A DNA stretch of 60,986 nucleotides from Mucilaginibacter polytrichastri (GTDB taxonomy: Bacteria; Bacteroidota; Bacteroidia; Sphingobacteriales; Sphingobacteriaceae): positions 16,273 to 77,258 of the forward strand of contig NZ_MPPL01000001.1 in the NCBI RefSeq assembly GCF_001911425.1, in the 5' to 3' direction. Below the pieces are notes generated by a model, which worked only from the letters and a program-made list of their open reading frames with translations, ran no database searches and was not told where the DNA came from. The translations under genes were made by a program, and so were the position numbers. Each line of letters starts with the position of its first letter. The stretch's first letter is position 1. Of this stretch, positions 306 through 19,673 are shown piece by piece.

Positions 306-311
306 CAGGAT
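293..311. other. Palindromic att core at the left junction
   Basis: The sequence ATCCTG-CTGTTAA-CAGGAT is a perfect 6-bp inverted repeat around a 7-bp spacer, the usual form of a tyrosine-recombinase crossover site. The spacer equals the anticodon loop of tRNA-Asn(GUU). At the right end (17994-18011) the same left arm and spacer are followed by TCAGA from tRNA-Asn instead of CAGGAT, so the exchange point falls in this spacer. A second inverted repeat (GATAAC/GTTATC, 309-325) follows and may bind the recombinase. Confidence 0.7.
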
Positions 312-447
312 AACAAATGGTTATCTGCTGTTGAATCTTAACAAACCCACTACATTTAGATAGCAGACAAATTTTTGTGACTATTTCTTTATCGCAATGT
401 CCTAATACGGCGAAACCAAGTAATTAGAAAATTATTGGCTGGTCCCG

Positions 448-2646
448 TTAATGGGTATGACCTTTTATATTATTTAACTCGTTAAAACGCTCCATATATA
501 TACCAAAATGGATCAGATCACTGCGGCCGAGGTTGCTGTAAAAAAGATATTCTGGAATTACTTGTTGTTCATTTGGATGTTTGTCAGCCTCTTCCGAATA
601 AATTTTGCGTCGTTGATGAAACAGCATACTTCTGTTATATGCATTGGCCTGTGCTTGCATATTACGTCCGTAAATGCCACCATCAGGTTTAAGGTCGAGT
701 GATTGCCGGAATGTGTCAGAGATATAAGACGTCCTGATCATATGTGATAAAAAGCTGAGCCAGTTCGGATGTATTGGGTCCGTCGCTGCAAGTCTGAGAT
801 TATTTAATAACCGAAGATAAAGAGTACTGCTGGAATCAATAGCAATTGGCAGGTAAGTTGTAGTGACAGATAAGCAATGGTTCTCGAAAAATGCATTGGC
901 AATCGTATTGATAGTGCCATAGGTAGGTGCAGTGTTGCAGGCGCATAGGAACACCAAAGGAGCACTGATGTCGTGAAGGACTACAAGTGGGCCGGTAAGT
1001 TGCTCGTCACCCAGCATTAGAAATGATGTTTTGTTTTCAGAGTTATAACCTCCGTGACAATCGAAAATAAGCAGATCCGGTTTATGTTTTCTAAATGCTT
1101 TTACCGCTGCGGCCACGGACAGACATACTTCAGTAACAAATTCATGCGTTTTGGCTAACTCTTTGACTTGGTAACGCCATGGCAGTAACTCCATCTCATT
1201 ACTACCAAAAATAACAAGTGTCTTTTTCAGGATATCTTTGGGCACAGTGTAAATGAAATGCTCGTTGGCAGCAAAGGAACTCATTAAACCGTGAAGTGCG
1301 GTTTCAGGAAGTCTGCAGATATCATGGGTGAAAGACAGCGGCACTCCGTCTGTTTCTAACCATTCTATCGGGAGGTCGGTAATGGCCACAATCTGACGAT
1401 TTTCCACAAGTAATTTAGCCTTTAATCCCGGAGATAATGTGCGTTCAGCTAGCTGACTTCCAAATTTAGAAATGGTCTCTTTGAGTATTTTACGCGTTTC
1501 ATGATCAGCATACTGGTCGATTTGGGAGGCGTCGAAAGCCGATAAGGTTTGGTTCAGTGTTTTGCCTTGAAACGGCAGGCGGATGACGGGAGAATAGGCA
1601 AATGAGGCATGAAGAGCGCCCAATGAATCAAGATATTTAATTTTTTGAAGAGTAACCTGCATCACCATACGCATTGATGTTTCGGTCATCGGTGGAAGAG
1701 AGTTAATATAATTCTGCGTCTGCTCAAAATCCATAGACGTGAGGAGATTAATTAGCTCCGGATCAAATTCAGCCGAAGCCGGACTTCGGTCCAATTTCAC
1801 GAGATCGGGATTTTGGTAAGGAGCGATGATCACGAGGGGTGAATACATGGTTTCTATCTCATGAACTGGTTTGATAATGTTATGCTCACGCATCAACTCA
1901 AAGAATTTATCAATCTTCCTCGTTGATCGGATCAACGTTTTAAGGCGCCCAAATGAGTAAGGGGCTTTTTGCGCTTCGATGAACTCGCGCTCATGTTCCG
2001 CTTTAATTTCTTCTTTACTTTTCTCAATAGTCCCGGGCCCGTATTTAAAGTTTCCAATAATCGAATTAAGCAAATGATAATTATTTTGTGCAGGCACAAA
2101 TATGGGGAAATCATAAAAATCCCGGGAGTAGACGTCCACGTGTGGGTGAAAAATAATATCAGGAGCCCCAATTAGTTCGAGGATATGCTGATGTTCTGCA
2201 TAAAGCATCCGCAAAAATTCTCCTGGGTCACTTACTTCATGGTCAAGACCGAGCGGCTGGTCATCTTTTTTATTAAAAAAAAAGTAATAGCTTAAGGGCT
2301 GATGAGCATCCATAAGGGTATTTAAAACGCTATCAAGTTCAAGAATATTTGTGTTGATCATGTAAAGCCGGATAATGTTCCTGCGACTATTTTCCAGGTA
2401 CGGAATGAGGCTTGAGTGATAGAGTACATTTAACCGGTAAGGGTTGTCATTTCTCAGACGATAAGCATTTTCGAAGAAATTTACCGGGTTGTCTATTTGC
2501 AGGATATCCTTTGGCAAGCATCGTATAAAGTCGAGTGCCGGCCCTTCGAGCTCCATTGGAGGAATGAAAGGGATAAATAAATTATCTTTTTCGGTGATGA
2601 GCAAGTAATGAATTTGCGTGATTTGGTTGGGTCTAAGTGATAACAT
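448..2646 (-). CDS. CHAT-domain (caspase-like) protein, 732 aa
   Basis: The C-terminal part (about residues 470-640) is a CHAT protease domain, the caspase-related family named after HetF and TPR proteins. The catalytic His-Gly is in FDCHGG (H531) and the catalytic Cys in FLCACNTAP (C570, with C568 just before). The first 450 residues match nothing I recognise and carry no obvious TPR array; they are probably the sensor or partner-binding part. There is no signal peptide, so it should act in the cytoplasm. It is divergent from the second CHAT gene with only 76 bp between starts, so the two probably share a promoter region. CHAT proteins usually cleave one specific partner; the substrate here is unknown. 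Confidence 0.85.
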   Translation of the reverse strand: MLSLRPNQITQIHYLLITEKDNLFIPFIPPMELEGPALDFIRCLPKDILQIDNPVNFFENAYRLRNDNPYRLNVLYHSSLIPYLENSRRNIIRLYMINTNILELDSVLNTLMDAHQPLSYYFFFNKKDDQPLGLDHEVSDPGEFLRMLYAEHQHILELIGAPDIIFHPHVDVYSRDFYDFPIFVPAQNNYHLLNSIIGNFKYGPGTIEKSKEEIKAEHEREFIEAQKAPYSFGRLKTLIRSTRKIDKFFELMREHNIIKPVHEIETMYSPLVIIAPYQNPDLVKLDRSPASAEFDPELINLLTSMDFEQTQNYINSLPPMTETSMRMVMQVTLQKIKYLDSLGALHASFAYSPVIRLPFQGKTLNQTLSAFDASQIDQYADHETRKILKETISKFGSQLAERTLSPGLKAKLLVENRQIVAITDLPIEWLETDGVPLSFTHDICRLPETALHGLMSSFAANEHFIYTVPKDILKKTLVIFGSNEMELLPWRYQVKELAKTHEFVTEVCLSVAAAVKAFRKHKPDLLIFDCHGGYNSENKTSFLMLGDEQLTGPLVVLHDISAPLVFLCACNTAPTYGTINTIANAFFENHCLSVTTTYLPIAIDSSSTLYLRLLNNLRLAATDPIHPNWLSFLSHMIRTSYISDTFRQSLDLKPDGGIYGRNMQAQANAYNRSMLFHQRRKIYSEEADKHPNEQQVIPEYLFYSNLGRSDLIHFGIYMERFNELNNIKGHTH

Positions 2647-2722
2647 GCGAATTGATAGGTTTATAGTAGCAATTTAGAATATTCGCAGGAATTTATCAGT
2701 AAATTTGATTTAAACGAATACA

Positions 2723-5700
2723 ATGCATCCAGTGAACGTCAAGCTGCCTGACCTTGCCATTTTACTTAAACGAAAGCAGTACAAACTTATCCTAAAGATC
2801 ACTTCGGGCCTAGCAATAAACGATCATCAATATTTTCATTCTCAGCTCTATCATTTCCGGGCATTAGCGGAATCAGGGAAATTTGTTAGTGCCAGCAGGC
2901 ATTGTAAGAAGTTAATCCCTGTAATGCCTTCGGATCATGGTCTCTATCCTATATTTCAGGCATGGAATATTTTTCTTGAACTTTTTGTTACAGAAAGGAA
3001 TAATTTCAAAGAAGTATTTGAAAGCCTCGGCGAAAATGAATGCACAGAAGATCAGACTTTGAAAGCCTTAACATGCTATTTGCAAAGTCGCGTCATATCA
3101 TTTGCAATGGCAGTTGGCAGTTGGCCACAAAACGCGATAAATCATGCTATAACACTCATGCAAGTTGCAGCAGATACCTATTTAAGAAGTGACGATCTAA
3201 TAGAATACGGTTCAGCAATAAAATCCATAGCGCTTCTTTACAGTAGCAATAATATCGCCGATATCCCGAAGGCAATCCTGTGTTTGCAACAGTTGTTACC
3301 GATCAGCGCCCATCCTGACAATTTATACTTTACGACAACGGTTCAACTATCACTTTTAATCCTTGAAAACCAAGCTGCTTTTGATACAGGTTGTTTCGTA
3401 GATCAGAACAAAAATGACCAACGCATTAATGAACTTATCCGTCAATTCCTAATAGCGGGTCATCCGTTGGGGGAAGCTGATGTCAAATTTGAGTGGGGAG
3501 TGCTATTATTGGAATACGGTTACGAAAAAGGCATGCCATTTTTGTTCAATTCGATCGAATTATATGATAAATATGGGGAGTTCAGTAACCGCCAGTCGGC
3601 TTGGAAAAAAATGGCAGACTGGTATGAGCGGAGGGGCCAGGCAGAAGAAGCCGACAATGCGTATCGGGAAAGTGCCAAAGTGGATACCCATATCGAACTG
3701 GAAATGACCGGAGCGATACAGGCTATCATGGAGATTCACCATGCATTCATGGCTAAGCCGGAACGGGAAGCTGTGCGACTCGGCAGATTTTATTTAAATA
3801 AATACAAAGATAGCCGCATTGCTCCGCAACTCAGGGCTCTGCTGGCGAATGCGCTTAGCCAGGGCGCGGGAAAGACGGAGGCACTTGAGCACTTTGAAGC
3901 CATTGTTGACTATTATCAGGGTTCATCACCAAGTAGTTTTTTGAGCGACGCCTTATTCAACTACAGCAACGCGCTTTTCTCAGTTGACCCTGTCGCTGCA
4001 AAGAATGCGGCTTTGAAAGCGATCGACATTGCATTTGAATTAAAAGACTATATTTCATTAGGGAAATATTTTCGTGAGCTGGCGCTGCACCTTTCCCAGC
4101 AAAAAAAAATAGCCCCCCTTTTAGTTGGGGCTAATGAGATCGAAGATACTTTCCGGAAAGCCCATGATTCATTTGCTCACGTGCAAACGCTAAAAGCGCG
4201 CATTGAAAAGTTCAATGCGATACAGCAACTGGGCAACTATTATTTTAATGAAAGGCAATTTGATAAAGCCCTAAACTGCCTGGATCAGGCGCGTGAATTT
4301 TATCATTCCAATAACCTCAGGATCAATTCTGCATTCGTGTTATCGCATATCGGACTTCTCAAATTTGAAGTGGCGAGGACTAACCGTATTCCGTCCTTAC
4401 TATTGGAGGCCGCTACCGATTTTGCAAAATCCGCGCAGGACTTCATTCAGATAAATGGGCATCGCTTTTCGTGGAAAAGTACACTCTTGGAGGCGCAGTC
4501 TATCGCAGAATATGCATCTTTGTATACTGTGGGGGAACTAGCAGAGCTTAATTATGAAAGAGCACAGACTTGTTTTTTACGTGCCGCTAATGTTGTCGAT
4601 TATCTAAAAGGGCTTCAGCAGATCGTCCTGTCAAAATACGATGAACAGTTTACACATGTTGATGGATTTTCTGGCCTCCCCGCAGATTTCAATAAAGTTT
4701 TTACAGGGGCTTTTAAGGCTGCTTATTACGGCAGAAAGCGCGCAGATCTTGCTCTTGAATGGGTGGAGCGAAATAAAAGCAGACGGCTGCAAACAGAACT
4801 TTGGAGAACGAGTGACATATTCGCGCCTGTGGATATGGCTTATGTACCGGGATTTGAAGAATTGAGAAAGATGCTGGTGGCATATCAGTTAGATTTCTCT
4901 ACCGAAAAGATGATGTTTTGTGAATTCTTTATTCTTGATCAGACCATTATTCTTTTTCTGATAAGGCCAGAGTGGAGCGGTCCCAAATATTTTACATTAG
5001 CTGTTCAATCCGATGAAATCGGCCGGGCCGTAACCGCTTTGATAAATGATCCGATAGCCAACGAAAATATGACCATCGCTTTACCATTAATTCAACATAT
5101 CCTCAATCATAGCGACCGTGACGATCTGCTATATATAATTCCGCATGGTTTTTTGCATCAATTACCATTCCATATGATCGATGTTGGTCAGGGCGAATAC
5201 CTGATCCAACGTAACCCCGTAGCTTATTTACCGGCCTTATCTATCTTATATCATCTTCAAAATAAATCGAAGGCGAAAGAAGGAAAGGTAGCAGTAAAAT
5301 TCGCGGTCTTTGGAAATTCGCGGGAGGACCTGCAGTTTTCTGAAGATGAGGCAATCTATGTGAGTACTTTACTTGATAGTGACTGTTATCTCCGTAACGG
5401 AGTGGATAAAGACACATTCATCAAGGAATTGGCTAACTCATCTGTCGTACATTTCGCCGGTCATGCAGAAGCTAAGCCTGTTAAGGGCCTAGATCAGCAC
5501 CTTCTCTTAGCGGGATTGGAAAGTATTTCGGCCAGCGAGCTAATGCTGATCAGGAACGATTTAGAACTACTCGTGTTAAGTGGTTGTCAAACAGGAATAA
5601 CTGCAATTGAGGTAACCACAGACGAAATAATCGGATTTCCCGCAGCCGCGCTGACAGCCGGGGCGTCTGCGGTAATTACGACATTATGGAAAGTGGAAGA

Positions 5701-5857
5701 TAAATCGACAAGACAATTTTTTAAATATTTTTACGAATCGTTTCGCAACAGGAAGTTGTCTAAAATTCGTTCAATGCAGTATGCCATGAAAGCCCTGATT
5801 AAAAACCCCGAATACGAACCATTCAACTGGGCGCCATTTATATTTACGGGCAGGTAG
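2723..5857 (+). CDS. TPR-CHAT caspase-like protease, 1044 aa
   Basis: About 650 N-terminal residues are alpha-helical with TPR-like repeats (for example around residues 280-330 and 500-545). The C-terminal 250 or so residues are a CHAT domain with the catalytic pair visible: HFAGHAE (H914) and LVLSGCQTG (C955). The ending, with GFPAAALTAGASAVITTLW, is typical of full-length CHAT proteins. The size and layout resemble Csx29, the TPR-CHAT protease of type III-E CRISPR, though that is an architectural comparison only. It is divergent from the other CHAT gene and ends 8 bp from the convergent subtilisin gene. The repeats could dock on the Argonaute or another sensor; this is inference. Confidence 0.88.
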   Translation: MHPVNVKLPDLAILLKRKQYKLILKITSGLAINDHQYFHSQLYHFRALAESGKFVSASRHCKKLIPVMPSDHGLYPIFQAWNIFLELFVTERNNFKEVFESLGENECTEDQTLKALTCYLQSRVISFAMAVGSWPQNAINHAITLMQVAADTYLRSDDLIEYGSAIKSIALLYSSNNIADIPKAILCLQQLLPISAHPDNLYFTTTVQLSLLILENQAAFDTGCFVDQNKNDQRINELIRQFLIAGHPLGEADVKFEWGVLLLEYGYEKGMPFLFNSIELYDKYGEFSNRQSAWKKMADWYERRGQAEEADNAYRESAKVDTHIELEMTGAIQAIMEIHHAFMAKPEREAVRLGRFYLNKYKDSRIAPQLRALLANALSQGAGKTEALEHFEAIVDYYQGSSPSSFLSDALFNYSNALFSVDPVAAKNAALKAIDIAFELKDYISLGKYFRELALHLSQQKKIAPLLVGANEIEDTFRKAHDSFAHVQTLKARIEKFNAIQQLGNYYFNERQFDKALNCLDQAREFYHSNNLRINSAFVLSHIGLLKFEVARTNRIPSLLLEAATDFAKSAQDFIQINGHRFSWKSTLLEAQSIAEYASLYTVGELAELNYERAQTCFLRAANVVDYLKGLQQIVLSKYDEQFTHVDGFSGLPADFNKVFTGAFKAAYYGRKRADLALEWVERNKSRRLQTELWRTSDIFAPVDMAYVPGFEELRKMLVAYQLDFSTEKMMFCEFFILDQTIILFLIRPEWSGPKYFTLAVQSDEIGRAVTALINDPIANENMTIALPLIQHILNHSDRDDLLYIIPHGFLHQLPFHMIDVGQGEYLIQRNPVAYLPALSILYHLQNKSKAKEGKVAVKFAVFGNSREDLQFSEDEAIYVSTLLDSDCYLRNGVDKDTFIKELANSSVVHFAGHAEAKPVKGLDQHLLLAGLESISASELMLIRNDLELLVLSGCQTGITAIEVTTDEIIGFPAAALTAGASAVITTLWKVEDKSTRQFFKYFYESFRNRKLSKIRSMQYAMKALIKNPEYEPFNWAPFIFTGR

Positions 5858-5865
5858 CTGTCAAA

Positions 5866-7071
5866 TTAATTTACAGGCGCTTTAATCATCCCGCTTCCGT
5901 AATCTTCAGACATTTCTCCGCTTAAAAGCTCGTCGTCACAGGATACCATTAAATTTGAATGAAGCATATTAGTATGGAATTGGTTCTTCTTCATTAATTT
6001 TTCTGCCCACATTGCAGCTATCCCGGCGACGTGTGGGGTAGCCATGCTGGTACCGTTTAGAGAGATGAGTCCGGTTGAGTTAGCTTCCGCTGAAAGAATA
6101 TCCATTCCCGGACCAGATAACATCACCCCCGTATTTGAAAATGGTGCAACATATAAACCTTTGCCATTCCATCCGAGCGCCCCCACGGAAATAATCTGTC
6201 GGGAAACAGCCGGTGGGCTAACAGCAATTTTATAGTCGGGGCGTGCGCTCTCATTGCCAGCCGCGGCGATAATCGTAACCGGCTGTGATGCCTCTGCATG
6301 CGCCTGTGTGGTTACAAGATTAGCCAGGCTTTCAAACAGTAGTACGTTTTTGCGGTAGCCTTCCAATGCAAAGGAAATCGCCGCCTCTTTATGCATACCT
6401 GCGAGCTCAAGCTCTTCGACAAAACCTGGGAAGTCCATACCTAAGGACATAGAAATAATATTGGCACCTTCTTTTACCGCCCATTGGACGGCATTGACCA
6501 GCATGTCACTTCCGCCCGCGTTTTTGCCGAGTACTTTTCCGATCAATACATTATCCGCTTCCCTTGCTACTCCTATACGATACCCGGAAACATCTCGTCC
6601 AAAAGCTACCCCTGCACAATGCGTTCCATGGCCTTCCGTATCGCCGTTACCTTCTCCTGTAAAATCTTTTTCCGTTATACGAATACCCGCAAAAGCAGGA
6701 TGACTTCTGTCAATTCCGGTATCTAAGATACATATCCTTACGCCTGCGCCTTGATATGGGCTAGTATCTGCGCCAATAGCTTTGATATTCCATAGCGGCT
6801 GACTTTCGGGCCTTGTACTTTCAGTCCCACGAAATGGTTTTATCAATTTAAGTGGCATCGCAGGAGCTATGGCCAGTACTTCCCTATTCCTATCCTGAAT
6901 TCGTCTGACCTGGTCGCCTTCCAATTGTTCTACTGCGACTTTTATCTCAGGGGCGACAACGAACTTGTCCATTTTTTTGCTGAGTTTTGACAGGCTCGGT
7001 CCGGAAGTGCGACCGCGAAAGCCGACTGTTGTTGATTTGTCGGTATAAAGTATTATGTGATTTATTTTCAT
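5866..7071 (-). CDS. Subtilisin-like (S8) serine protease, 401 aa
   Basis: The complete S8 catalytic set is present: Asp117 in ILDTGID, His148 in EGHGTHCAG, oxyanion Asn273 in AAAGNES and Ser342 in NGTSMATPHVAG. Residues 34-78 look like a short I9-type inhibitory propeptide, so the enzyme may be made as an inactive precursor. No signal peptide is seen, which is unusual for subtilisins and suggests a cytoplasmic job. It is the last gene of a three-gene minus-strand operon (small protein, NUC1 endonuclease, protease), 46 bp after the endonuclease. A plausible role is as the second step of a cascade, activated by a CHAT protease and acting on the neighbouring nuclease. That is inference. Confidence 0.92.
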   Translation of the reverse strand: MKINHIILYTDKSTTVGFRGRTSGPSLSKLSKKMDKFVVAPEIKVAVEQLEGDQVRRIQDRNREVLAIAPAMPLKLIKPFRGTESTRPESQPLWNIKAIGADTSPYQGAGVRICILDTGIDRSHPAFAGIRITEKDFTGEGNGDTEGHGTHCAGVAFGRDVSGYRIGVAREADNVLIGKVLGKNAGGSDMLVNAVQWAVKEGANIISMSLGMDFPGFVEELELAGMHKEAAISFALEGYRKNVLLFESLANLVTTQAHAEASQPVTIIAAAGNESARPDYKIAVSPPAVSRQIISVGALGWNGKGLYVAPFSNTGVMLSGPGMDILSAEANSTGLISLNGTSMATPHVAGIAAMWAEKLMKKNQFHTNMLHSNLMVSCDDELLSGEMSEDYGSGMIKAPVN

Positions 7072-7117
7072 GGTTGTCCTTTAAATTAAAGTTTACATAT
7101 AGGGTCGATTTGCATGA

Positions 7118-8161
7118 TCAAAGTCCTCGAAGAAATGTGCCCCATTCGAAGGTATCCATCTGTTGACGAAATTCTTCAAACTTCAAGACTCGATTCAACG
7201 GCTTGTTGATTGTGCGTGCGGCATATTGGCTTTTCCCCTTATAATCATCAGCATCGTTCAATCCAAAACGAAGCCCCGTTTTTTCCTCGATCAGACTTAT
7301 TTTGATCTGCGCCGCCAAAAGCTCTTTTTTTTGAAATAGCCGCTCAATAGCTGCTCTTGTAAGTGTTGGTTTTACCGTTTTAAGTATTTCCAGTAAAGGC
7401 CCTTTTTGAGTTTTAAGATTATCCAGATATGGCTCCTGACTCATAAGGAAACCAAGTGCTTTCAGATTTCCTGCATTTTCGAAAACGAGGATTTTCCAAA
7501 AATTCATCGGCACCAACAAGCCATTGATGTATTGTGCTTTATTGAATATAGGGCCGGAAAACAGGGTAATCTTATTATCCTGAAAAATATTTCTCGCGGC
7601 ACAATAGTCCTCTAAATAATTCCAAACTATACCATTGAAATACGGGATTTGCGGACAGCAATTCGTATAGTGGAAAGTATCTCCTATGGCAATTTTCTGC
7701 TCTTCGGCAGTCCCCCAGGCCGGATCGTAATAACGTACCAAATGTCCTTTAGCCAAGCCTGAATGCAGGTAATCTGCATTTCCATACTGCAACGTGTTTT
7801 CACCGGTGATGATGCGTTCGTCGGCATACCAAGAATCGCTACCGCGTTCATCGTGCACCATGCCTAAAAGGTTGGTTTTGCCATACATATTGACGGCGCT
7901 GAAAAACGGCAGGCGTGCATCCTTATTAAATGATACACTGAAATGGGTATAATCCAACACTTTGTCACCATTCGGGCCGGCATTTTTTAACACGCTTGCA
8001 ACTTTATCCATGTCAGTTGAGGCTATCAATGGCAATGGCAGCCGGGCACTTAGAAAACCTGGATCATATCCTTTTCGATTATTCAATTGATCTGTATGTA
8101 CAGCCTGCTCAAATTTGGGGACGTTTAAAGAATGTCTTAGAGCTAATTTAAAAAGTTTCAT
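7118..8161 (-). CDS. DNA/RNA non-specific endonuclease (NUC1 family), 347 aa
   Basis: The middle of the protein carries the NUC1 beta-beta-alpha-metal signature. KGHLVRYYD replaces the usual DRGH and supplies the general-base His140; then come DTFHYTNCCPQ and YFNGIVWNYLE, where Asn176 is the expected metal ligand. The N-terminal GYDPGFL...LPLP segment is also seen in conflict-system members of this family. No signal peptide is present, so an active enzyme would degrade the cell's own nucleic acid. That fits a tightly controlled suicide effector kept as a proenzyme or bound to an inhibitor. The small gene upstream and the protease downstream are the obvious candidates for control (inference). 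Confidence 0.85.
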   Translation of the reverse strand: MKLFKLALRHSLNVPKFEQAVHTDQLNNRKGYDPGFLSARLPLPLIASTDMDKVASVLKNAGPNGDKVLDYTHFSVSFNKDARLPFFSAVNMYGKTNLLGMVHDERGSDSWYADERIITGENTLQYGNADYLHSGLAKGHLVRYYDPAWGTAEEQKIAIGDTFHYTNCCPQIPYFNGIVWNYLEDYCAARNIFQDNKITLFSGPIFNKAQYINGLLVPMNFWKILVFENAGNLKALGFLMSQEPYLDNLKTQKGPLLEILKTVKPTLTRAAIERLFQKKELLAAQIKISLIEEKTGLRFGLNDADDYKGKSQYAARTINKPLNRVLKFEEFRQQMDTFEWGTFLRGL

Positions 8162-8175
8162 GATAAGTATTTAAA

Positions 8176-8529: not shown

Positions 8530-8667
8530 ATGCAGCAAAACATGGGAATGTCGATTTGGTATGCTGATATTCACGAAATCAATGTGCTAATGGTTTTACC
8601 GGAAGCTTTAGGTAAAGTTTTAAAAGATTCGATTTGTCCTTGGCAGAGCTCATATTACGCAGATTGA
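8530..8667 (+). CDS. Possible 45-aa ORF between operons
   Basis: A short frame from ATG 8530 overlaps the end of the convergent helicase gene by 13 bp and is the only plausible coding content of the 227-bp gap 8428-8654. It has no recognised domain. It may equally be a degraded remnant or chance. Confidence 0.25.
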   Translation: MQQNMGMSIWYADIHEINVLMVLPEALGKVLKDSICPWQSSYYAD

Positions 8668-10868: not shown

Positions 10869-11007
10869 AACAAGGTTTAAAGATAGGGCTTATTCGTGTT
10901 TTACTGCTCAAAACAACCTAAAGAAACCATTTAACGGGTTGAAATTGTATCTTTATTTGATCAGCTACCTTTTCGGTAACCTGATTGCATATATATAAGT
11001 AAGAGCT
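10869..11007. promoter_or_regulatory. Divergent control region of helicase and sigma/Argonaute operon
   Basis: This 139-bp stretch must hold promoters for both directions. I could not assign a convincing TTG/TAnnTTTG pair. About 25 bp before the sigma start is an imperfect palindrome at 10962-10983 (CAGCTACC ... GGTAACCTG) that could be an operator or an autoregulatory element of the sigma factor. Confidence 0.35.
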
Positions 11008-11601
11008 ATGATAGACTACAAAGACATAATGCAATTGATCATCAATCAAGACCCCAAAGGACTTGAGGAATTGTATGATACATACGGTAAAAAATTCTAT
11101 ACCTATTGTGTCCATAATTGGCATTTATCTGAAGATGAGTCCTGGGAAGTTATTTATAAGACGTTGGAAACACTGATCCTTAAACTGGCTCATTATGAGT
11201 TTGAATCTAAGCAGCATTTTGACAACTTTCTATATAAGGTTCTGACTAATTTTCTTCGGCAATATTTCAGGAAAAACCGCTGCAACAGTGAGCATGAATT
11301 AGCGTATGTCGATTTGATGGGTGAGGAAGCAGATTCCAGTGAAATTAACAAGCATATTAATCAGCTTTCATTTACTGATTATTATAAATCAGAGTTTATT
11401 GACAGCCCGGAATTGCTCCATTTGAATGAGGCATTGGAAACATTAGACCCGCTGGACAAGGATATTTTGCTTTTACGTGCGCAAAATTACAGTTACGACG
11501 AAATATCCGCTTTCCTTGGGGTTGAGAATAAGCAACTTAAAGTGACTCATCACCGTGCTAAGAAGAAACTGATTGATAAATTAATTGAAAAACAACTATA
11601 A
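11008..11601 (+). CDS. ECF-type RNA polymerase sigma factor, 197 aa
   Basis: A short sigma-70 family protein. The region 2-like part spans about residues 12-95 (DPKGLEELYDTYGKKFYTYC, then aromatic and basic residues up to YFRKNR), and the region 4 helix-turn-helix spans about 145-192 (LETLDPLDKDILLLRA, YSYDEISAFLGV, THHRAKKKL). It opens the six-gene Argonaute operon and is followed after 3 bp by an unknown protein of the same length. ECF factors are normally held by an anti-sigma encoded next door, so that protein is the candidate. A dedicated sigma factor in an Argonaute operon is unusual and recalls the RpoE of type III-E CRISPR loci. Confidence 0.85.
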   Translation: MIDYKDIMQLIINQDPKGLEELYDTYGKKFYTYCVHNWHLSEDESWEVIYKTLETLILKLAHYEFESKQHFDNFLYKVLTNFLRQYFRKNRCNSEHELAYVDLMGEEADSSEINKHINQLSFTDYYKSEFIDSPELLHLNEALETLDPLDKDILLLRAQNYSYDEISAFLGVENKQLKVTHHRAKKKLIDKLIEKQL

Positions 11602-11604
11602 GCC

Positions 11605-12198
11605 ATGAACAACCGCATTGATATTACGGATGAAGCCTTGAGGATATACTATCTGGAGAGTGCAAAGGAGGCTGATGATCATATTGCTGAACGAGAGATC
11701 AGCTACGTACTTACGTTATCGCCTGACGACGAGATTGATCAGGGACGCGAAACTCAACTTATGAAAAAATTGCGGGATGTCCTGCTCAATATGTCGCTGG
11801 GCCAATTGATCCAGGAGCGGATGGTGCAGTCTTCAATTTCTGAAGACTTGCTTGCGGAATCCTCTTCTTTACCTGTAGAAATGATCCGAGAAATAGTTGA
11901 GGATAAAATATATGCGAACAACATTCCAGTTGTGATTCTGAAAGACCTGTTAAAGGGCTTGAAGATCTCGTTTGAAAAAGCAGAACGTGCCATTCATAAG
12001 ACCTTCGAGATATTACAGCATCAGAATCTGGGGAAAAGCAATTTTTCAGCTTTTAACCCTTCATTTCGTAAAAGTGTTTATATTTCCAAGGATATGATCT
12101 CTGATATCGTTCCGAAGACAGATGGCAAAGAATTGTTTGAAAACAAGCTGGCGATGGAAAAATACCTTACCCGTTTAAATGAACTTTTAAGCGAATAA
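11605..12198 (+). CDS. Unknown 197-aa protein; candidate sigma-binding partner
   Basis: I recognise no family. The protein is soluble, mostly helical and rather acidic. A central stretch (about residues 85-145) reads like two or three short helix-turn-helix-type bundles, and the rest has no Cys/His metal site. It sits 3 bp after the sigma gene and 3 bp before the nuclease gene, so translation is probably coupled. The position is that of an anti-sigma or sigma-tethering protein. By analogy with Csx30 in type III-E systems it could be the protease-cleaved switch that frees the sigma factor. This is a position-based inference without homology. Confidence 0.7.
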   Translation: MNNRIDITDEALRIYYLESAKEADDHIAEREISYVLTLSPDDEIDQGRETQLMKKLRDVLLNMSLGQLIQERMVQSSISEDLLAESSSLPVEMIREIVEDKIYANNIPVVILKDLLKGLKISFEKAERAIHKTFEILQHQNLGKSNFSAFNPSFRKSVYISKDMISDIVPKTDGKELFENKLAMEKYLTRLNELLSE

Positions 12199-12201
12199 GT
12201 C

Positions 12202-13197
12202 ATGAATGTGAAATGGGCCTATACGACTGTTAATACCTGGAGGGAATGTAATCGCAAATATTACTTCGCTTCTGTTTTAGCTAACCATAACCGCAAAAAT
12301 TTGGTCAGACGGAAAGCCTATGAACTTCGCGCCATGCAGAATTTAACAATGTGGAAGGGAAGTGTGGTCGATAAGTTTTTAGAAGTGGTGATCATACCAA
12401 TGATTACAGCGCAAAAGGAATTGGATTTTCAGTGCCTTTCCGAGCAAGCTGTCGCATTCGCCCGGAAACAATTCCGTTTTTCCGAAAACAAGCTTTACGA
12501 TAATCCAGAACTGAAAAAAGGGGATATTGAAAGTGAATATTGTATTCTTGATATCCATGAAACCGGTCAACCCTACACAGAGCAAGATCTGTTAGTATGT
12601 TATGATGACATACGGAAAGCCATATTAAATATTCCGTTAGTCGTTTTACCGGACGGTCGCCATTTGATGAATTTGCTGAAAGAGGCAAACTGGCTGAAGC
12701 CAAATGTGGAGGACAGATTAGTTTACGTGGGTAACGCGATAGTCAAACCCCAAATGGACTTACTGGTCTCCGATAACTGGAAGCCGGTCATCATAGATTG
12801 GAAATTGTCCGACAGCATGGTTTCCGACTACGCTCGCCAGCTACAGATAAGCGGTCTGACCATTTATAAAAAAAGACTGGATACACCGGGTAAGCCGCCT
12901 TATCTATTTGAAGATATCGGGCTTTTAGAGGTTAATCTGTTAAAGGGCATTGCCAAACATCACGACTTTAATCAGGAGATATATAACAATACGATTGATT
13001 ATATCTCCCTGACAAGCCGTGATATCGCGCTTATGACGGGCGAGGATATTGATATTGAAGATTTTGAGCTTACAAACAACCAGGTTTCCTGCAAAAACTG
13101 CAATTTCAGATTGCTATGCGGGTATTTAATAAAAAATAACAATATATACGATGAAGGATCATATCTTAAATCTGTACCGGATAGACAACTTGTCTGA
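12202..13197 (+). CDS. Cas4-like PD-(D/E)XK nuclease with Fe-S cysteines, 331 aa
   Basis: The fold of Cas4/RecB-type exonucleases is indicated by the N-terminal WRECNRKYYF (Cys16), the catalytic Asp186 (PQMD) and DWK (Asp199-Lys201), the motif-Q helix ARQLQISGLTIYKK (Gln213), and the C-terminal Cys297-x2-Cys300-x5-Cys306. With Cys16 these make the four ligands of a 4Fe-4S cluster, as in Cas4, AddB and Dna2. The usual upstream His is replaced by Asp57. Its last 47 bp overlap the start of the Argonaute gene, so the two are made together. Cas4-like partners could trim guides or degrade targeted DNA; which applies here is unknown. Confidence 0.85.
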   Translation: MNVKWAYTTVNTWRECNRKYYFASVLANHNRKNLVRRKAYELRAMQNLTMWKGSVVDKFLEVVIIPMITAQKELDFQCLSEQAVAFARKQFRFSENKLYDNPELKKGDIESEYCILDIHETGQPYTEQDLLVCYDDIRKAILNIPLVVLPDGRHLMNLLKEANWLKPNVEDRLVYVGNAIVKPQMDLLVSDNWKPVIIDWKLSDSMVSDYARQLQISGLTIYKKRLDTPGKPPYLFEDIGLLEVNLLKGIAKHHDFNQEIYNNTIDYISLTSRDIALMTGEDIDIEDFELTNNQVSCKNCNFRLLCGYLIKNNNIYDEGSYLKSVPDRQLV

Positions 13198-15538
13198 ACT
13201 GGACTTCTCTTATAAACTGATTGATTTCGACCTGTCGTTTATTGCAGGCAAGGAGGAATTGCTCAATAAGCAACTGCAAAAAATTGCGGAAGAGGTTTCT
13301 TCAGTTACTAAGGGTCCAACTGCTGTTTTGAAAAGGAACCAACGGTTTTTTGTAGCTGTTCCGGCTGATAAGCAGATGGAGGACCGAAGCATAGATGGCA
13401 TACCTTTCAGCATCCCAATCAAACTTCTCCCGGAGGTATACCGGATCGATTCAAAAGATATACAAGGCCATCAGCTTGACGTAGTCTATAAATTCCTTGA
13501 TTATGAAATCAGGCGGCAGTTGGGGCAGCATCGTGATCTTTGGAAATTGAATACCCATCAGTTTTTTCTCCGGGATCCGATGAAGGGCATCCAGGGATCG
13601 ATAAACGTTTTTGAGGGCTTTACTTACAAGTTGGCACGGTTAGCTGATGGGCATTTCTATGTCACATTGGATCTTTCTACTAAGTATATTGATAAATATT
13701 GTCTTTCTCATTATATCAATGAAGGAAATGTGCGGACTTTTGAAAATAACTACAAAGGCAGGCGTTTCCTCTATTTGAACGGCGATAATTGGTATACCAT
13801 TGAACTACTGGGATTTGGAAAATCCGTCAAAGAACAGGATTTTATCAGAGAAGGTACGACTTATAATGTATTGAATTATATTACTGAAAAGATAGAACAT
13901 AGCCGTACCGATCTGAAGAGGTATGTCAAGCCGAATGACCTTTCCATGTCCTACACTTATCCCGGGAGAACCATGGATCCACATAGCGGTGCCACTTCCC
14001 TGGCTAGAATGCTTTACAATACCAAGGATGAAAGGGTGAAGTCGCTACATTACCTGTCGATCAAAGGCCCATCGAAGCGATTTGAAGCAATCAATAATTA
14101 TATCAGTTCCTATTTCAAGAACCTGAAATTTAATGCCGGTAAGTTACTTATCAGCAATGAGCCACTAGTGGAAAAGATTAAAAATTTCTGGATACCTGAA
14201 CTGTTGTTCAATAACAATCGGCGCTTGAAAATCACCGGTTTTAATTCCGGGATGCGGGATTTTGCTTACCAACGGAAACAACTTATCAAGAATAACGGGG
14301 TTCTTAACCGCACTTCTTTTGATGTGCAGTATCTTCTTGTTCCGGATGAACAGTATATGGACGCCAATCTTGTGGAGGGGTTCAAAAATAATGCTGAGTT
14401 CCTGATCAAGAAATTAGCACCGGCTTTTGATAAATTCATAATTATCCGTTACCCTGTCAAAAGCTGTACCTCTGCATCTGTGCAGATTCAGGAGATCGAA
14501 AAGGTGCTTCACCGCAGGAATGCATTACATGGTTTTGCGCTGGTGGTACTGCCAGACCTGGATGCTTTCTCACCGGCCTTTCTAAAAACGTTTCACGAAC
14601 TGCTTAAAAGCAAGTTCTATCCTGACCTAAAAGTGCAATGTGCATCGGCGCATAACATCAGCTCATTCTTCAAACCGTTTTCTACTGCTGGTAACAATGG
14701 CATAGTTGAATACCGTGTAGTAGAAGCCTTAAAGGGGCGTTTCAGTTCTTACCTTTTTTATCTGGTGCTTGAACACCTGATCGTAAATAGAAAATGGCCG
14801 TATGCTTTGGCCAAAAACTTGTTTTACGATATCTATATCGGGATCGATGTGCATGACCGCCATGCCGGTTTTACATTTTTCTTTAAAAACGGTGAGCAAA
14901 TTATATTTCATCCGGAAGAAGTACCGCAGAAAACAAACTCCCAGCGCGTGGAGAAAGTCCGGGCAAAGACGTTGAATAAGGTGATCTACGAAAAGCTGAA
15001 ATTGTATATCCCGCTTTACGCGCCTAATCCTAACGGGATCGTAATTGTACGGGACGGCAGAAGCTTTGGAGTAGAATATAAAGCGTTGCAGGGCGCCATT
15101 AACACCCTTGCCGCTGAGGGAATTGTCAATAAAGATACAGTAAAATATGGCGTTGTGGATCTACATAAACAGAGTTCCGTTCCGATTAGGATCGCGGCAA
15201 AAACAAACAGCTACGACAAACTGGAAAACCCGGTAGCAGGGTCTTATAAACTGGTATCACCGAAGGAAGGATTTATTTTTAGTACCGGTTATCCGTTCGA
15301 TATTAAAGGAACTTCAAGGCCCCTAAACCTATCCATGAAAGAAGGCGATCTCGATTTTATGAAGGTCATGGAGGACGTTTTCTGTCAAATCATGCTGGCT
15401 TTTTCGGCGCCTGACAAAAGTAACTTCCTCCCGGTTATCATTAAACTCATCGATACCCTGCTCGAGCCGTTGACCGCTACCCGAGAAACTGCGGATGAGG
15501 ATGAAGAGGATGAAGAAGAAATGATGGACATCAATTAA
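13151..15538 (+). CDS. Long prokaryotic Argonaute, 795 aa, probable active PIWI
   Basis: The start ILNLYRIDNL is typical of long pAgos and supports ATG 13151 despite the 47-bp overlap. N and PAZ-like regions span about 1-330, MID about 370-530 and PIWI about 550-770. PIWI residues: Asp566 (YIGIDVHD), Asp635 (IVRDGR, 69 residues later as in TtAgo and CbAgo), probable glutamate finger Glu601, and the KGTSRPLNL ending where Asn726 may be the fourth residue. The enzyme should therefore be catalytic (DEDN-like). A classical MID 5'-phosphate signature is not obvious; Gln496 in LKVQC may belong to it. The tail (about 780-790) is strongly acidic. DNA-guided, RNA-cleaving Argonautes are known from Mucilaginibacter and Pedobacter; whether this belongs with them needs an alignment. 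Confidence 0.88.
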   Translation: MKDHILNLYRIDNLSELDFSYKLIDFDLSFIAGKEELLNKQLQKIAEEVSSVTKGPTAVLKRNQRFFVAVPADKQMEDRSIDGIPFSIPIKLLPEVYRIDSKDIQGHQLDVVYKFLDYEIRRQLGQHRDLWKLNTHQFFLRDPMKGIQGSINVFEGFTYKLARLADGHFYVTLDLSTKYIDKYCLSHYINEGNVRTFENNYKGRRFLYLNGDNWYTIELLGFGKSVKEQDFIREGTTYNVLNYITEKIEHSRTDLKRYVKPNDLSMSYTYPGRTMDPHSGATSLARMLYNTKDERVKSLHYLSIKGPSKRFEAINNYISSYFKNLKFNAGKLLISNEPLVEKIKNFWIPELLFNNNRRLKITGFNSGMRDFAYQRKQLIKNNGVLNRTSFDVQYLLVPDEQYMDANLVEGFKNNAEFLIKKLAPAFDKFIIIRYPVKSCTSASVQIQEIEKVLHRRNALHGFALVVLPDLDAFSPAFLKTFHELLKSKFYPDLKVQCASAHNISSFFKPFSTAGNNGIVEYRVVEALKGRFSSYLFYLVLEHLIVNRKWPYALAKNLFYDIYIGIDVHDRHAGFTFFFKNGEQIIFHPEEVPQKTNSQRVEKVRAKTLNKVIYEKLKLYIPLYAPNPNGIVIVRDGRSFGVEYKALQGAINTLAAEGIVNKDTVKYGVVDLHKQSSVPIRIAAKTNSYDKLENPVAGSYKLVSPKEGFIFSTGYPFDIKGTSRPLNLSMKEGDLDFMKVMEDVFCQIMLAFSAPDKSNFLPVIIKLIDTLLEPLTATRETADEDEEDEEEMMDIN

Positions 15539-15549
15539 ATTTAAATATC

Positions 15550-15993
15550 ATGAGTGATGTAAGCATATTGTCCAACCAGTACAATCAATTGGTTGCGACC
15601 TCGGATAAAGTAAATAACTCGGTTATTACTTTTAAAAAAGAATACCTCTTGACCGATAAGAGCAACAAGGATAAATATCCGAAGTTAGCTGTGTCCGCAG
15701 AAGAACATGCGGAAGCTAAAAAGACCCTCACAGCTTTTTTGGATAATATTAAAAAGATCATGGATGACAATGAGTTAAAGTCGGATTTCATACCATCGCT
15801 GATCATTCTTGATTATAAAGACCGATTGTCCCAGCACCATGACCTGGAGAATGGTTTAAAAACTTTGATTGATCGGGTGGCGAATGATCAGCCTATTGAA
15901 AATAAAGAACTGCTGGTACTTGACGATCTATTGACGGTACTTGACAGCGAGCGGAGCACATTGTTCAGGAAGCTAAGAAAAGGGCGCGGATGA
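15550..15993 (+). CDS. Unknown helical 147-aa protein after Argonaute
   Basis: I do not recognise this protein. It is hydrophilic and almost entirely helix-forming, with possible coiled-coil stretches, no signal peptide and a very basic C-terminal end (FRKLRKGRG). It starts 11 bp after the Argonaute stop and overlaps the metallopeptidase start by 4 bp (ATGA), so it is translated with its neighbours. It could be an adaptor, an inhibitor of the peptidase or its substrate. Nothing in the sequence decides this. Confidence 0.7.
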   Translation: MSDVSILSNQYNQLVATSDKVNNSVITFKKEYLLTDKSNKDKYPKLAVSAEEHAEAKKTLTAFLDNIKKIMDDNELKSDFIPSLIILDYKDRLSQHHDLENGLKTLIDRVANDQPIENKELLVLDDLLTVLDSERSTLFRKLRKGRG

Positions 15994-17117
15994 TTTTTTT
16001 TCTGAAAGGGTTATTCTTTGATCAGGCATCCAAAATCTCCAAAATGATGGATGAATTGAATGCCTCAACAATTTCGCCGGAGATTGACAGCGCCTTTTTG
16101 CAAAAAACGAAGGACCTCCTGCATGAACTTTATCAGGAAACTCAATTGTTGATCGGTTCTGGCGACTTGGATATCGAATCTTTAGCGTCCAATAATATCA
16201 TCCGCTATAATACGATTCACGAGAAGATTCTAAATATCGAGCTATTCCGGTTTTTAGTAATAATCAATTATGACGATGCAGAGATTTATTTCAAAAAAAA
16301 GATTACTAAAATTTACGAGGAGATTAATTGCTTTTTTCAAAATCCGCCGATCATTACGACAATCAGTAATTCCGACGACTATTTTTGGGCGTTTCCCGGC
16401 TATGATATCATTGCCGTACCCAATGGAGAACAACGGAACTTGTTGAATTTGCCCGATCTATATCACGAAATGGGGCACCTATTTTTCAGCCAATATGAAA
16501 AATTCCTGATTGGAAAGATCAATAAATCCATTGAGGTATTTTACAACAGAGAAATCATTCGGGTAGACAGCGAGCAACGCGTGCAGACTCTAAAAGGTTT
16601 TTACAGAGAAAAACTTGTCAGGTGGGCCAACGCGTGGGTCATGGAGTTTTCTTGTGACTTGATTGCTACCTACCTTGTCGGCCCAGCATATGCCTGGACT
16701 AATCTTAAGATATGTACATTGAGCAGCGGACACTCCAACATATACAACGATTCGGCCAAGCATCCTTCGGACGAAGCACGGATGAGGGTGATTTGTTACC
16801 TGCTGTCCAAAATGGGACATTCGGCAGAAGTTTCTGAAATCGACGCGGCCTGGGATAAATTTCTGAAAGCCACCAATAATCCCGTTCCAGCTAATTATGG
16901 CGATATATTTCCGAAAGAATTACTAGAAGAACTTGCTGATAATGTCTACGAAGGGTGCAAAAAAATAGACCTGAGGGTTTACGCGGATCAACTCTTCAAA
17001 TATGGTCAGCCGATATCCAAAATACTAAATGATGCCTGGGCAGAGCTTTTTGAAAACCCAGATAATTTTGCCGACTGGGAAAAGCAAAGGATTGTGGAGA
17101 TCAATGCCTCACTGTGA
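15990..17117 (+). CDS. HEXXH zinc metallopeptidase-like protein, 375 aa
   Basis: The zinc motif HEMGH is at residues 159-163 in a DLYHEMGHLFFSQY helix. Glu219 in WVMEFSCDLIATYLV provides the third ligand with Asp223 four residues on, the HEXXH + ExxxD arrangement of gluzincins. A later KHPSDEARMRV stretch (about residue 262) resembles the HP...R segment seen in several such peptidases. About 150 residues of unknown helical sequence precede the active site. No signal peptide or TM segment is visible, so it should be cytoplasmic. It closes the Argonaute operon. A fourth protease in the same element strengthens the idea of proteolytic signalling; the substrate is unknown. Confidence 0.8.
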   Translation: MIFFLKGLFFDQASKISKMMDELNASTISPEIDSAFLQKTKDLLHELYQETQLLIGSGDLDIESLASNNIIRYNTIHEKILNIELFRFLVIINYDDAEIYFKKKITKIYEEINCFFQNPPIITTISNSDDYFWAFPGYDIIAVPNGEQRNLLNLPDLYHEMGHLFFSQYEKFLIGKINKSIEVFYNREIIRVDSEQRVQTLKGFYREKLVRWANAWVMEFSCDLIATYLVGPAYAWTNLKICTLSSGHSNIYNDSAKHPSDEARMRVICYLLSKMGHSAEVSEIDAAWDKFLKATNNPVPANYGDIFPKELLEELADNVYEGCKKIDLRVYADQLFKYGQPISKILNDAWAELFENPDNFADWEKQRIVEINASL

Positions 17118-17136
17118 GCTCAGAAAAATAATGCAC

Positions 17137-17208
17137 TTATCGTAATTTAATTTGTGTGATTTTAAAAAGATTAATCCAGATAAAAATGATGATAAGTAAT
17201 ATAAACAT
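17137..17208 (-). CDS. Possible 23-aa membrane peptide
   Basis: A short minus-strand frame begins with Met followed by a nearly uninterrupted Leu/Ile/Phe/Trp run and ends with a basic tail, as in a single membrane span. It lies just past the metallopeptidase in AT-rich DNA, where hydrophobic frames can arise by chance. Listed because a second such frame occurs at 17720-17827. Confidence 0.2.
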   Translation of the reverse strand: MFILLIIIFIWINLFKITQIKLR

Positions 17209-17320
17209 GCTAATGCCCAGAATTAACAGATCATTATTATAGTTGAAATATAATTGTTAATTGCCCCAATGTCAAATATGGCGATTGAAGATATTCCTAT
17301 TTCCTTATTTTGACTTTATT

Positions 17321-17343
17321 GTCTTTGTATTTGATACAAAGAC
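17321..17343. repeat. Perfect 10-bp hairpin
   Basis: GTCTTTGTAT and ATACAAAGAC pair fully around a TTG loop, followed at once by a second palindrome (GTAAGAACTTAC, 17344-17355). It is about 200 bp downstream of the Argonaute operon. There is no clear T-run, so it is not a textbook terminator. It could still end the operon or bind a protein. Confidence 0.5.
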
Positions 17344-17596
17344 GTAAGAACTTACACCGTTCTTGGTTGCGAAGAAATTACATAATTTTTAACAGGCGAA
17401 TTAATTCAGATATACAAAACGATTCGATATTCTTGAATTATCGAACCCACAGTTCTCCATCGATAAACAACAACTGAACATTATGCTTTCCAGCATTCTT
17501 TCTGCCCTTGCTTTGATTCACAACCCAACTGGCATAATCCTGCATCCTTAAATATCGCCGACAGCGGTAGTCAGTCTGCGCTTGGTTTGCTTTTTA

Positions 17597-17704
17597 TTAT
17601 TTGTGCTGGCTGCCAAATTCTTCCTGCAGACGAAGGATTGTTCCCGCATTTTCGATCGCTGTGGTAACCTTAAACTTGGTCCGAATAACACCCGAATCAT
17701 TCAT
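17597..17704 (-). pseudogene. Fragment of DNA-3-methyladenine glycosylase I (tag)
   Basis: The 35-residue frame reads NDSGVIRTKFKVTTAIENA followed by LRLQEEFGS. It resembles the segment of Tag that reads QDAGIIRHRGKIQAIIGNA in E. coli. Neither the N-terminal nor the C-terminal parts follow in any frame, so it is a remnant. The region 17400-17600 next to it also contains broken frames, for example one ending in LLFIDGELWVR, which I cannot name. It shows that the right end of the element collects decayed DNA. Confidence 0.5.
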
Positions 17705-17719
17705 CAGGCGTTCGCATCG

Positions 17720-17827
17720 TTACATGCGTCGCTGTCTCTCTACCCATGAATCCGTTAACAGTGTGTTCATTAGGATAATCAAAAGCAGCAATATTATAAA
17801 GATCAACAGCAGCAGTAATACCTCCAT
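17720..17827 (-). CDS. Possible 35-aa membrane peptide at element end
   Basis: The frame begins MEV followed by an unbroken run of about 17 Leu/Ile/Phe residues and ends with a basic tail (WVERQRRM). This looks like a small toxin, holin-like or regulatory membrane peptide. No ribosome binding site stands out. It is 58 bp inside the right 121-bp repeat. It may be a chance frame. Confidence 0.3.
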   Translation of the reverse strand: MEVLLLLLIFIILLLLIILMNTLLTDSWVERQRRM

Positions 17828-17885
17828 TTGAAACCCAGATTTGTTTCCAATTCGGCAGGAAAATTTGTATAATTGTATAGCATAA

Positions 17886-18006
17886 GATGTCCTTATGTAA
17901 TTGACGCGATGTTGGTTATTGTGCCACAAATGTGCCACAGTTTTAAAATATAGTTCGTAATTTCTTTGTTTTCAATCGGTTACAGATGGGAGAATCCTGC
18001 TGTTAA
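17886..18006 (+). repeat. Right 121-bp direct repeat (attR arm)
   Basis: Second copy of the repeat at 185-305, with two substitutions (near 17954 and 17963). It carries the paired TGTGCCACA motifs and the crossover core CTGTTAA (18000-18006), then continues directly into tRNA-Asn sequence. It defines the right end of the element. Confidence 0.9.
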
Positions 18007-19666: not shown

Positions 19667-19673
19667 TGACCAT

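What the first reader, a model, noticed from the sequence alone, without database searches (positions are those of the whole stretch)
306..18006. Candidate Argonaute-protease system: a pAgo analogue of Craspase
Seen: one mobile unit carries a catalytic-looking long Argonaute, a Cas4-like nuclease, a helicase, an ECF sigma factor with an unknown partner, two CHAT proteases (one TPR-CHAT), a cytoplasmic subtilisin, an HEXXH peptidase and a NUC1 nuclease. Known: in type III-E CRISPR a guided RNA nuclease activates a TPR-CHAT protease, which cleaves a protein (Csx30) that controls an ECF sigma factor. Inference: here the Argonaute is the guided sensor, the TPR-CHAT protein the first protease, and the sigma factor and nuclease the outputs. 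I know of no described Argonaute system with this set of parts.
Basis: partly seen in the sequence, partly recalled or inferred. Interest (0 to 1): 0.96.

Follow-up and report, generated by a model that had tools for sequence, protein, structure and literature searches.

The report
Argonaute operon with built-in peptidase switch
A bacterial Argonaute operon, which sits beside an apparently separate cluster of protease and nuclease genes, carries in all 29 related loci examined its own peptidase gene, in most of them together with a sigma factor and a predicted repressor, and these would likely act together as the switch that turns this defence on.

Summary
Their union into one Argonaute-Craspase pathway is not supported. 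The Argonaute belongs to the published D-R pAgo "PnyAgo group" (DNA-guided RNA nucleases with a Cas4-like gene and a sigma factor). Related loci keep its core genes, and 28 neighbourhoods searched give no TPR-CHAT or BovA hit. BovA relatives lack these neighbours in 4 of 4 loci; CHAT/S8/NucA sets occur without Argonaute, like the published peptidase-NucA "System 3". Apparently undescribed: an HEXXH peptidase and a small gene follow the Argonaute in 29 of 29 loci, and on 72,556 plasmids peptidase and Argonaute hit the same five records. Upstream stands either sigma+p197 (21 of 28) or a Cro/C1 repressor gene (6 of 28); p197 itself models as Cro/C1, closest to CapH, which the peptidase CapP cleaves. 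A GTAACC element precedes sigma in 21 of 22 operons; the window has no second good site. Likely mechanism: a peptidase-released, self-amplifying expression switch, CapH/CapP-like in logic, unproven. Kept open: two distant Argonaute operons carry the same subtilase.

The parts
10970..11003 (+). conserved promoter-like element GTAACCT...TGCATATATATAAGTAA before the sigma gene (likely sigma promoter; an operator is possible)
   Evidence: GTAACC[TC] 30-64 nt before the start of the sigma ORF in 21 of 22 sigma-type operons, window included; matrix score in window 40.4 bits (this site is in the training set), next site 8.6; whole genome 1 exact match
11008..11601 (+). ECF-type sigma factor (197 aa)
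   Evidence: TIGR02937 55.6 bits, cut-off 42.9; in 21 of 28 related loci with a complete 5' part, always with p197
11605..12198 (+). p197, predicted regulator with Cro/C1-type HTH at residues 64-131
12202..13197 (+). Cas4-like PD-(D/E)XK nuclease
   Evidence: PADLOC Aga_Cas4-like_Nuc 1.8e-67; D186, D199, K201 and C16/C297/C300/C306 in 28 of 28 aligned sequences
13151..15538 (+). long catalytic-looking pAgo, D-R pAgo PnyAgo group
   Evidence: PADLOC pAgo_II 1270 bits; tetrad D566 E601 D635 D755; PDB 8xih differs at 5 of 795 residues
15550..15993 (+). p147, small conserved protein between pAgo and HEXXH
   Evidence: family HMM in 23 loci, remote relatives in 5 more (hhalign 91.8%, E 7e-7), by position alone in 1 more
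15990..17117 (+). HEXXH metallopeptidase (H159 E160 H163, E219, C222-D223, H258-P259, R264)
   Evidence: 29 of 29 related pAgo loci; listed residues invariant in 30 of 30 aligned sequences (window, 28 loci and a second copy in L079); same 5 plasmid records as pAgo
8655..10868 (-). PIF1-type helicase with HTH_40, frequent accessory
   Evidence: Pfam PIF1 91 bits; within the fetched flanks in 15 of 23 related neighbourhoods, on either side; DNA similarity to M. agri runs 8683-8864 and 9615-17050
448..2646 (-). neighbour, separate system: Borvo-type BovA CHAT protein
   Evidence: PADLOC BovA 8.5e-46; no other window protein beside it in 4 of 4 fetched loci
2723..5857 (+). neighbour: TPR-CHAT protease of the protease/NucA cluster
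   Evidence: CHAT 151 bits; E<=1e-40 in 1 of 201 genomes, the window's own
5866..7071 (-). neighbour: S8 subtilase of the protease/NucA cluster
   Evidence: Peptidase_S8 122 bits; relatives beside CHAT, caspase or trypsin genes on plasmids
7118..8161 (-). neighbour: NucA (Endonuclease_NS) nuclease
   Evidence: PF01223 125 bits
185..305 (+). left 121-nt direct repeat of the unit
   Evidence: 119/121 identical to right copy; both copies run up to CTGTTAA, which is also in the tRNA-Asn gene at its GTT anticodon
17886..18042 (+). right 121-nt repeat (17886-18006) running into the last 43 nt of tRNA-Asn (18000-18042)

Best explanation
It is a conserved operon of a likely DNA-guided, RNA-cutting Argonaute (published D-R pAgo, PnyAgo group) whose HEXXH peptidase, present in all 29 related loci, probably releases expression by cleaving the operon's own predicted Cro/C1-type regulator, and it lies next to, but is likely independent of, a CHAT/subtilase/NucA protease cluster. 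Steps. (1) Shown: gene order sigma-p197-Cas4-pAgo-p147-HEXXH; in six more distant loci sigma+p197 is replaced by one Cro/C1 repressor gene. (2) Shown as a pattern: a GTAACC element stands before sigma; inferred: sigma transcribes its own operon from it. (3) Predicted: p197 folds as a Cro/C1 repressor over residues 64-131; inferred: it holds the sigma or the promoter down. (4) Inferred: DNA damage or single-stranded DNA from an invader (as in CapP/CapH and PprI/DdrO) activates the HEXXH peptidase, perhaps through p147; it cuts p197 (or the Cro/C1 repressor) and the operon amplifies itself. (5) Inferred from published relatives: Cas4-like nuclease and helicase make or load short DNA guides, and the pAgo cuts complementary RNA. 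The CHAT/subtilase/NucA genes would act as their own proteolytic cascade.
Confidence: 0.5

Rival explanations
1. Argonaute-guided peptidase: the HEXXH protein is the effector, not the switch. Target recognition by the pAgo, relayed by p147, licenses HEXXH to cut cell or phage proteins.
For: p147 (or a small gene in its place) and HEXXH follow pAgo in 29 of 29 loci while the regulators upstream are exchanged; gaps of 11 and -4 nt in the window. A relative of HEXXH (tblastn E 4e-4) with a small gene before it precedes a dCTP deaminase gene on an Emticicia plasmid, about 8 kb from that plasmid's pAgo operon.
Against: The pAgo is itself catalytic-looking and needs no effector. Pairing of a peptidase with a Cro/C1-type regulator is an established switch.
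Confidence: 0.2
2. One reading: Argonaute senses, TPR-CHAT cuts a sigma-controlling protein, sigma and NucA are outputs.
For: All parts share one repeat-bounded unit; the CHAT domain aligns with PDB 'CHAT domain protein' chains 8d9f and 7x8a (E 1.5e-5 and 1.7e-5; Craspase entries by recall) and with Csx29 7y9x at E 0.017.
Against: No TPR-CHAT or BovA hit in 28 related neighbourhoods; TPR-CHAT relatives at E<=1e-40 in 1 of 201 genomes, its own; sigma scores 18.7 bits against the type III-E sigma model with cut-off 100; p197 matches no PDB chain at E<=10; no good sigma element before CHAT or NucA genes.
Confidence: 0.05
3. The subtilase and NucA are optional effectors of D-R pAgo operons, the CHAT genes being bystanders.
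For: 59-60% identical subtilase 20 and 33 nt after HEXXH on the same strand in G015 and G033, NucA 63% identical upstream in G015, although those pAgos are only 24% identical to the window's; 3 of 3 subtilase genomes among 250 and 2 of 2 NucA genomes among 250 have it near pAgo.
Against: G015 and G033 are one genus, so perhaps one event; of 28 neighbourhoods 25 have no subtilase hit and one a weak one (24%, E 4e-4); relatives lie beside CHAT, caspase or trypsin genes or in an ordinary neighbourhood, as in G413.
Confidence: 0.15
4. HEXXH and p147 serve guide making: HEXXH matures the Cas4-like nuclease or pAgo, and regulation is by sigma alone.
For: Strict linkage of pAgo, p147 and HEXXH in 29 loci, and of Cas4 in the 28 with a 5' part, fits a shared biochemical step as well as a switch.
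Against: Purified pAgos of both groups cut RNA without partners (PMC9360449 passages).
Confidence: 0.1

Closest known systems
D-R pAgos, PnyAgo and PliAgo groups (Lisitskaya et al. 2022, PMC9360449; passages read)
   Same: Cas4-like PD-(D/E)XK gene before pAgo; sigma70 factor (PnyAgo group) or HTH regulator (PliAgo group); catalytic tetrad.
   Different: The main text never uses 'peptidase', 'protease', 'metalloprotease' or 'HEXXH', and the passages read name no p147- or p197-like partner. Its Fig. 1b was not seen and may draw unnamed genes.
CapH-CapP of CBASS, PprI-DdrO, ImmR-ImmA (peptidase cleaving a Cro/C1-type repressor; PMC10904395 passages; ImmR recalled)
   Same: Cro/C1-type regulator and peptidase encoded with a defence module; p197 model closest to CapH.
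   Different: Peptidase not recognised as the same family; sigma factor added; regulator and peptidase lie at opposite ends of the operon; cleavage untested.
Craspase, type III-E CRISPR
   Same: CHAT domain of the neighbouring TPR-CHAT aligns with PDB CHAT chains 8d9f/7x8a (E about 1.5e-5; Craspase by recall).
   Different: CHAT not conserved with the Argonaute; no CRISPR array seen in 1-24000; sigma is not the III-E family.
System 3: multiple peptidases coupled to NucA (Kaur et al. 2020, PMC7159879; passages read)
   Same: NucA with several peptidases including S8; proposed proteolytic cascade.
   Different: Window cluster has CHAT in place of trypsin.
Borvo (BovA) and SPARTA
   Same: BovA match 8.5e-46; TIR gene plus short pAgo next door.
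   Different: Separate systems, not parts of the pAgo operon.

Membership tests
D-R pAgo, PnyAgo group | long pAgo with DEDX tetrad | tested here: met
   D566, E601, D635 invariant, D755 in at least 90% of 26 sequences
D-R pAgo, PnyAgo group | Cas4-like PD-(D/E)XK gene directly upstream and sigma70 gene in the operon | tested here: met
D-R pAgo, PnyAgo group | DNA guides, RNA targets | not testable with these tools
   a near-identical protein has a solved structure (8xih) but the search for its entry code found no paper
Craspase (type III-E) | TPR-CHAT co-conserved with the guided nuclease | tested here: not met
   0 of 28 related pAgo neighbourhoods
Craspase (type III-E) | type III-E sigma factor | tested here: not met
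   NF041236 18.7 bits, cut-off 100; generic ECF model scores 55.6
Craspase (type III-E) | Csx30-like sigma regulator | tested here: inconclusive
   p197 matches no PDB chain at E<=10 and no NCBIfam model; p197 model is Cro/C1-like; no direct comparison with Csx30 was made
Craspase (type III-E) | CRISPR array and Cas7-11 | tested here: inconclusive
   no CRISPR-like repeat family in 1-24000 and no Rfam match in the window; the genome was not searched for Cas7-11
CapH-CapP type switch | Cro/C1 HTH regulator in the operon | tested here: met
   by model for p197; by Pfam HTH_3 for one exchangeable gene
CapH-CapP type switch | peptidase of the ImmA/IrrE family | tested here: inconclusive
   no Pfam match at E<=0.01 to such a family in 29 members though the HEXXH motif is invariant; fold search showed no clear relative, which does not exclude one. 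Filed as works-like, not member
CapH-CapP type switch | ssDNA-activated cleavage of the regulator | not testable with these tools
   needs purified proteins
System 3 (peptidases + NucA) | NucA nuclease with several peptidases in one cluster | tested here: met
   CHAT, S8, Endonuclease_NS adjacent
System 3 (peptidases + NucA) | trypsin-like peptidase core | tested here: not met
   no trypsin domain in the four proteins at 448-8161; filed as similar only
Borvo | BovA protein, single-gene system (the latter recalled) | tested here: met
   PADLOC 8.5e-46; none of the other 12 window proteins beside it in 4 of 4 fetched loci
SPARTA | TIR-APAZ partner beside short pAgo | tested here: met
   PADLOC TIR-PNTD1-PNTD2 1.3e-143 and pAgo_I 9.8e-202; short-pAgo PDB chains E about 1e-145 to 1e-137 (that these are SPARTA is recalled)

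The most novel reading that the evidence does not exclude
A true Argonaute-peptidase system: nucleic-acid recognition by the Argonaute (or the ssDNA it is loaded from), relayed by the small p147 protein, activates the dedicated HEXXH peptidase, which cleaves the predicted Cro/C1-type p197 and frees the sigma factor. This would be a guided-nuclease-to-protease-to-sigma chain evolved separately from Craspase and, in its peptidase half, shared by all D-R Argonautes.
Probability: 0.2. Interest if true: 0.9.

Novelty: new variant of a known kind. Interest (0 to 1): 0.58.

Why it matters
D-R pAgos are proposed as RNA tools, but their natural role is open, as the 2022 paper says (passages). If every such operon carries a peptidase and an exchangeable regulator, experiments with the pAgo alone lack the likely switch, and the trigger becomes directly testable. 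It would also show one control logic (peptidase plus Cro/C1 regulator) reused by CBASS, DNA-damage responses and Argonautes. The check also removes a tempting but unsupported Argonaute-Craspase claim.

Tried and rejected

Rows dropped or thin: L020, L022, L024, L025 (same loci as L062, L011, L010, L015). L019 (4.3 kb) lacks its 5' part and is left out of the regulator counts; it counts among the 28 neighbourhoods though it is short. 25 of those 28 hold 10 kb or more upstream of pAgo; L016, L019 and G375 hold less. The 19-kb G580 neighbourhood (L097) was not searched with the CHAT queries, only its small match locus L055. For BovA, G145 was read only as its small match locus. NUC1 plasmid hits: 20 of 52 records seen. 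In one search, 120 of 398 HEXXH relatives were listed. The matrix was trained on 21 sites that include the window's own. The Cro/C1 gene of G580 was not tested for GTAACC.
Full report
Observation. The unit 306-18006 is bounded by 121-nt direct repeats (119/121 identical) and the right copy continues into the last 43 nt of a tRNA-Asn gene whose intact copy is at C1:5684228-5684302 of the same genome. Both repeat copies run up to CTGTTAA, the sequence at the GTT anticodon of that tRNA, which is what integration there would leave (inference). No integrase gene was found in the unit.

The Argonaute is known in kind. PADLOC places it in pAgo_II; PDB entry 8xih holds a protein with 5 differences in 795 residues, and 9wmd scores the same (no paper found by entry code; MbpAgo of Mucilaginibacter paludis is a recalled candidate). 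Lisitskaya et al. 2022 (PMC9360449, passages) described two groups of DNA-guided, RNA-cutting pAgos, both with a Cas4-like gene, one with an HTH regulator (PliAgo group) and one with a sigma70 factor (PnyAgo group). The window operon has the second composition. Relatives come from Mucilaginibacter and other Bacteroidota and, on plasmids, also from a cyanobacterium and a Rhizobium.

Conserved core. I gathered 29 distinct related pAgo loci: 12 from genome contigs, 7 more, 5 more and 5 plasmids. In all 29 a gene of the HEXXH family follows pAgo after one small gene. In 21 of the 28 loci with a complete 5' part sigma and p197 precede Cas4, always as a pair; in 6 a single Cro/C1 HTH gene stands there; in 1 (cyanobacterium L076) neither was found. 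pAgo identity to the window's runs from 90% to about 24% in the loci where tblastn aligned it, and the G580 pAgo matches the family profile at 3.7e-36. L077 is the RslAgo operon: its pAgo accession WP_013921749.1 is the one purified in the 2022 paper. Control from another collection: among 72,556 plasmids, pAgo (E<=1e-20) hits 5 records and HEXXH (E<=1e-3) hits the same 5. A PIF1 helicase lies in 15 of 23 fetched neighbourhoods.

CHAT cluster. None of 28 neighbourhoods (23, 5; 25 of them with 10 kb or more upstream of pAgo) has a tblastn hit at E<=1e-3 to TPR-CHAT or BovA. DNA similarity to the M. agri locus, whose pAgo is 90% identical, covers window 8683-8864 and 9615-17050 only. BovA relatives (6 of 201 genomes, own included) have no other window protein beside them in 4 of 4 fetched loci, as expected for Borvo (a single-gene system by recall). 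A subtilase relative on an Agrobacterium plasmid follows a 1157-aa CHAT gene, near another S8 gene and a trypsin-NucA fusion; Sphingomonas and Bradyrhizobium plasmids have the subtilase next to caspase and trypsin genes; a Methylobacterium plasmid has it without such a neighbour directly beside it. Kaur et al. 2020 describe NucA with multiple peptidases as 'System 3' (PMC7159879, passages). So the left half is best read as Borvo plus a System-3-like cluster.

Evidence that keeps a link open. G015 and G033, with pAgos only 24% identical, have a 59-60% identical subtilase 20 and 33 nt after HEXXH, and G015 a 63% identical NucA gene upstream. In 250 genomes of the order the subtilase (E<=1e-60) is in 3, all beside pAgo, and NucA (E<=1e-40) in 2, both such. 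Against: G015 and G033 share a genus, in which 2 of 145 genomes have it, and in a sample of 148 genomes of the phylum the one hit besides the window (G413, 52%) has no pAgo hit on the 20 kb fetched and ordinary-looking neighbours.

Promoter element. GTAACC[TC] lies 30-64 nt before the sigma ORF start in 21 of 22 operons; exact GTAACCT is in 20 of 22 stretches of 180 nt, where its density in the loci predicts about 0.27 (rows are related, so this is a pattern, not a probability). It is absent from 200 nt before the Cro/C1 gene in 5 of 5 tested. A weight matrix finds one site in the window (40.4 bits, itself in the training set; next 8.6; five shuffles reached 8.4 to 15.0). Pattern search with up to 3 mismatches gives 8 window hits against 5.6 expected; the sigma site alone has 1 mismatch, another at 21622-21638(-) has 2. 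The genome has 1 exact match and 2 with one mismatch (control 1). So sigma appears dedicated to its own operon.

Mechanism. Best reading: HEXXH peptidase removes p197 (or the Cro/C1 repressor), sigma then amplifies the operon, Cas4-like nuclease and helicase supply guides, pAgo cuts RNA. Gene order, conservation and the element are shown; the fold of p197 is predicted; cleavage, trigger and outcome are inferred. Novelty searches: papers on Argonaute with CHAT/TPR, Cas4-like operons (35), Mucilaginibacter Argonaute (67) and Argonaute with metallopeptidase/sigma (117) showed, in their listings, no description of the peptidase partner; the library lacks most subscription papers, and the supplements and figures of PMC9360449 were not seen.

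Noticed in passing
window 18272-21191: A SPARTA-type pair (TIR gene and short pAgo) starts about 230 nt after the tRNA-Asn fragment, so two different Argonaute systems lie side by side.
   Followed up: partly
L081:3865-5959 (Emticicia plasmid pEMTOL01): A relative of the HEXXH peptidase follows a small gene and precedes a dCTP deaminase gene inside a type I restriction locus, suggesting the small-protein/HEXXH pair may also serve other defence genes.
   Followed up: partly
L071 (Agrobacterium pTiCFBP5877): A trypsin-NucA fusion, two S8 peptidases, three CHAT genes, a caspase gene and two TIR genes lie within 17 kb of the plasmid.
   Followed up: partly
L006:7936-9252: An integrase-like gene (Phage_int_SAM_5) lies 213 nt after the intact tRNA-Asn at C1:5684228-5684302; it is not among the PF00589 matches.
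   Followed up: no
window 53852-56601: Type IIG-like restriction-methylation gene and specificity subunit in a low-GC stretch (31-34%).
   Followed up: no
L004:1501-1592: A decayed copy (79%) of the tRNA-Asn end and its right flank elsewhere in the genome, perhaps an old insertion scar.
   Followed up: no
L077:14232-16411 and L075:5089-7502: Multiubiquitin/ThiF/DUF6527 gene clusters lie next to D-R pAgo operons on two different plasmids (Runella, Spirosoma).
   Followed up: no
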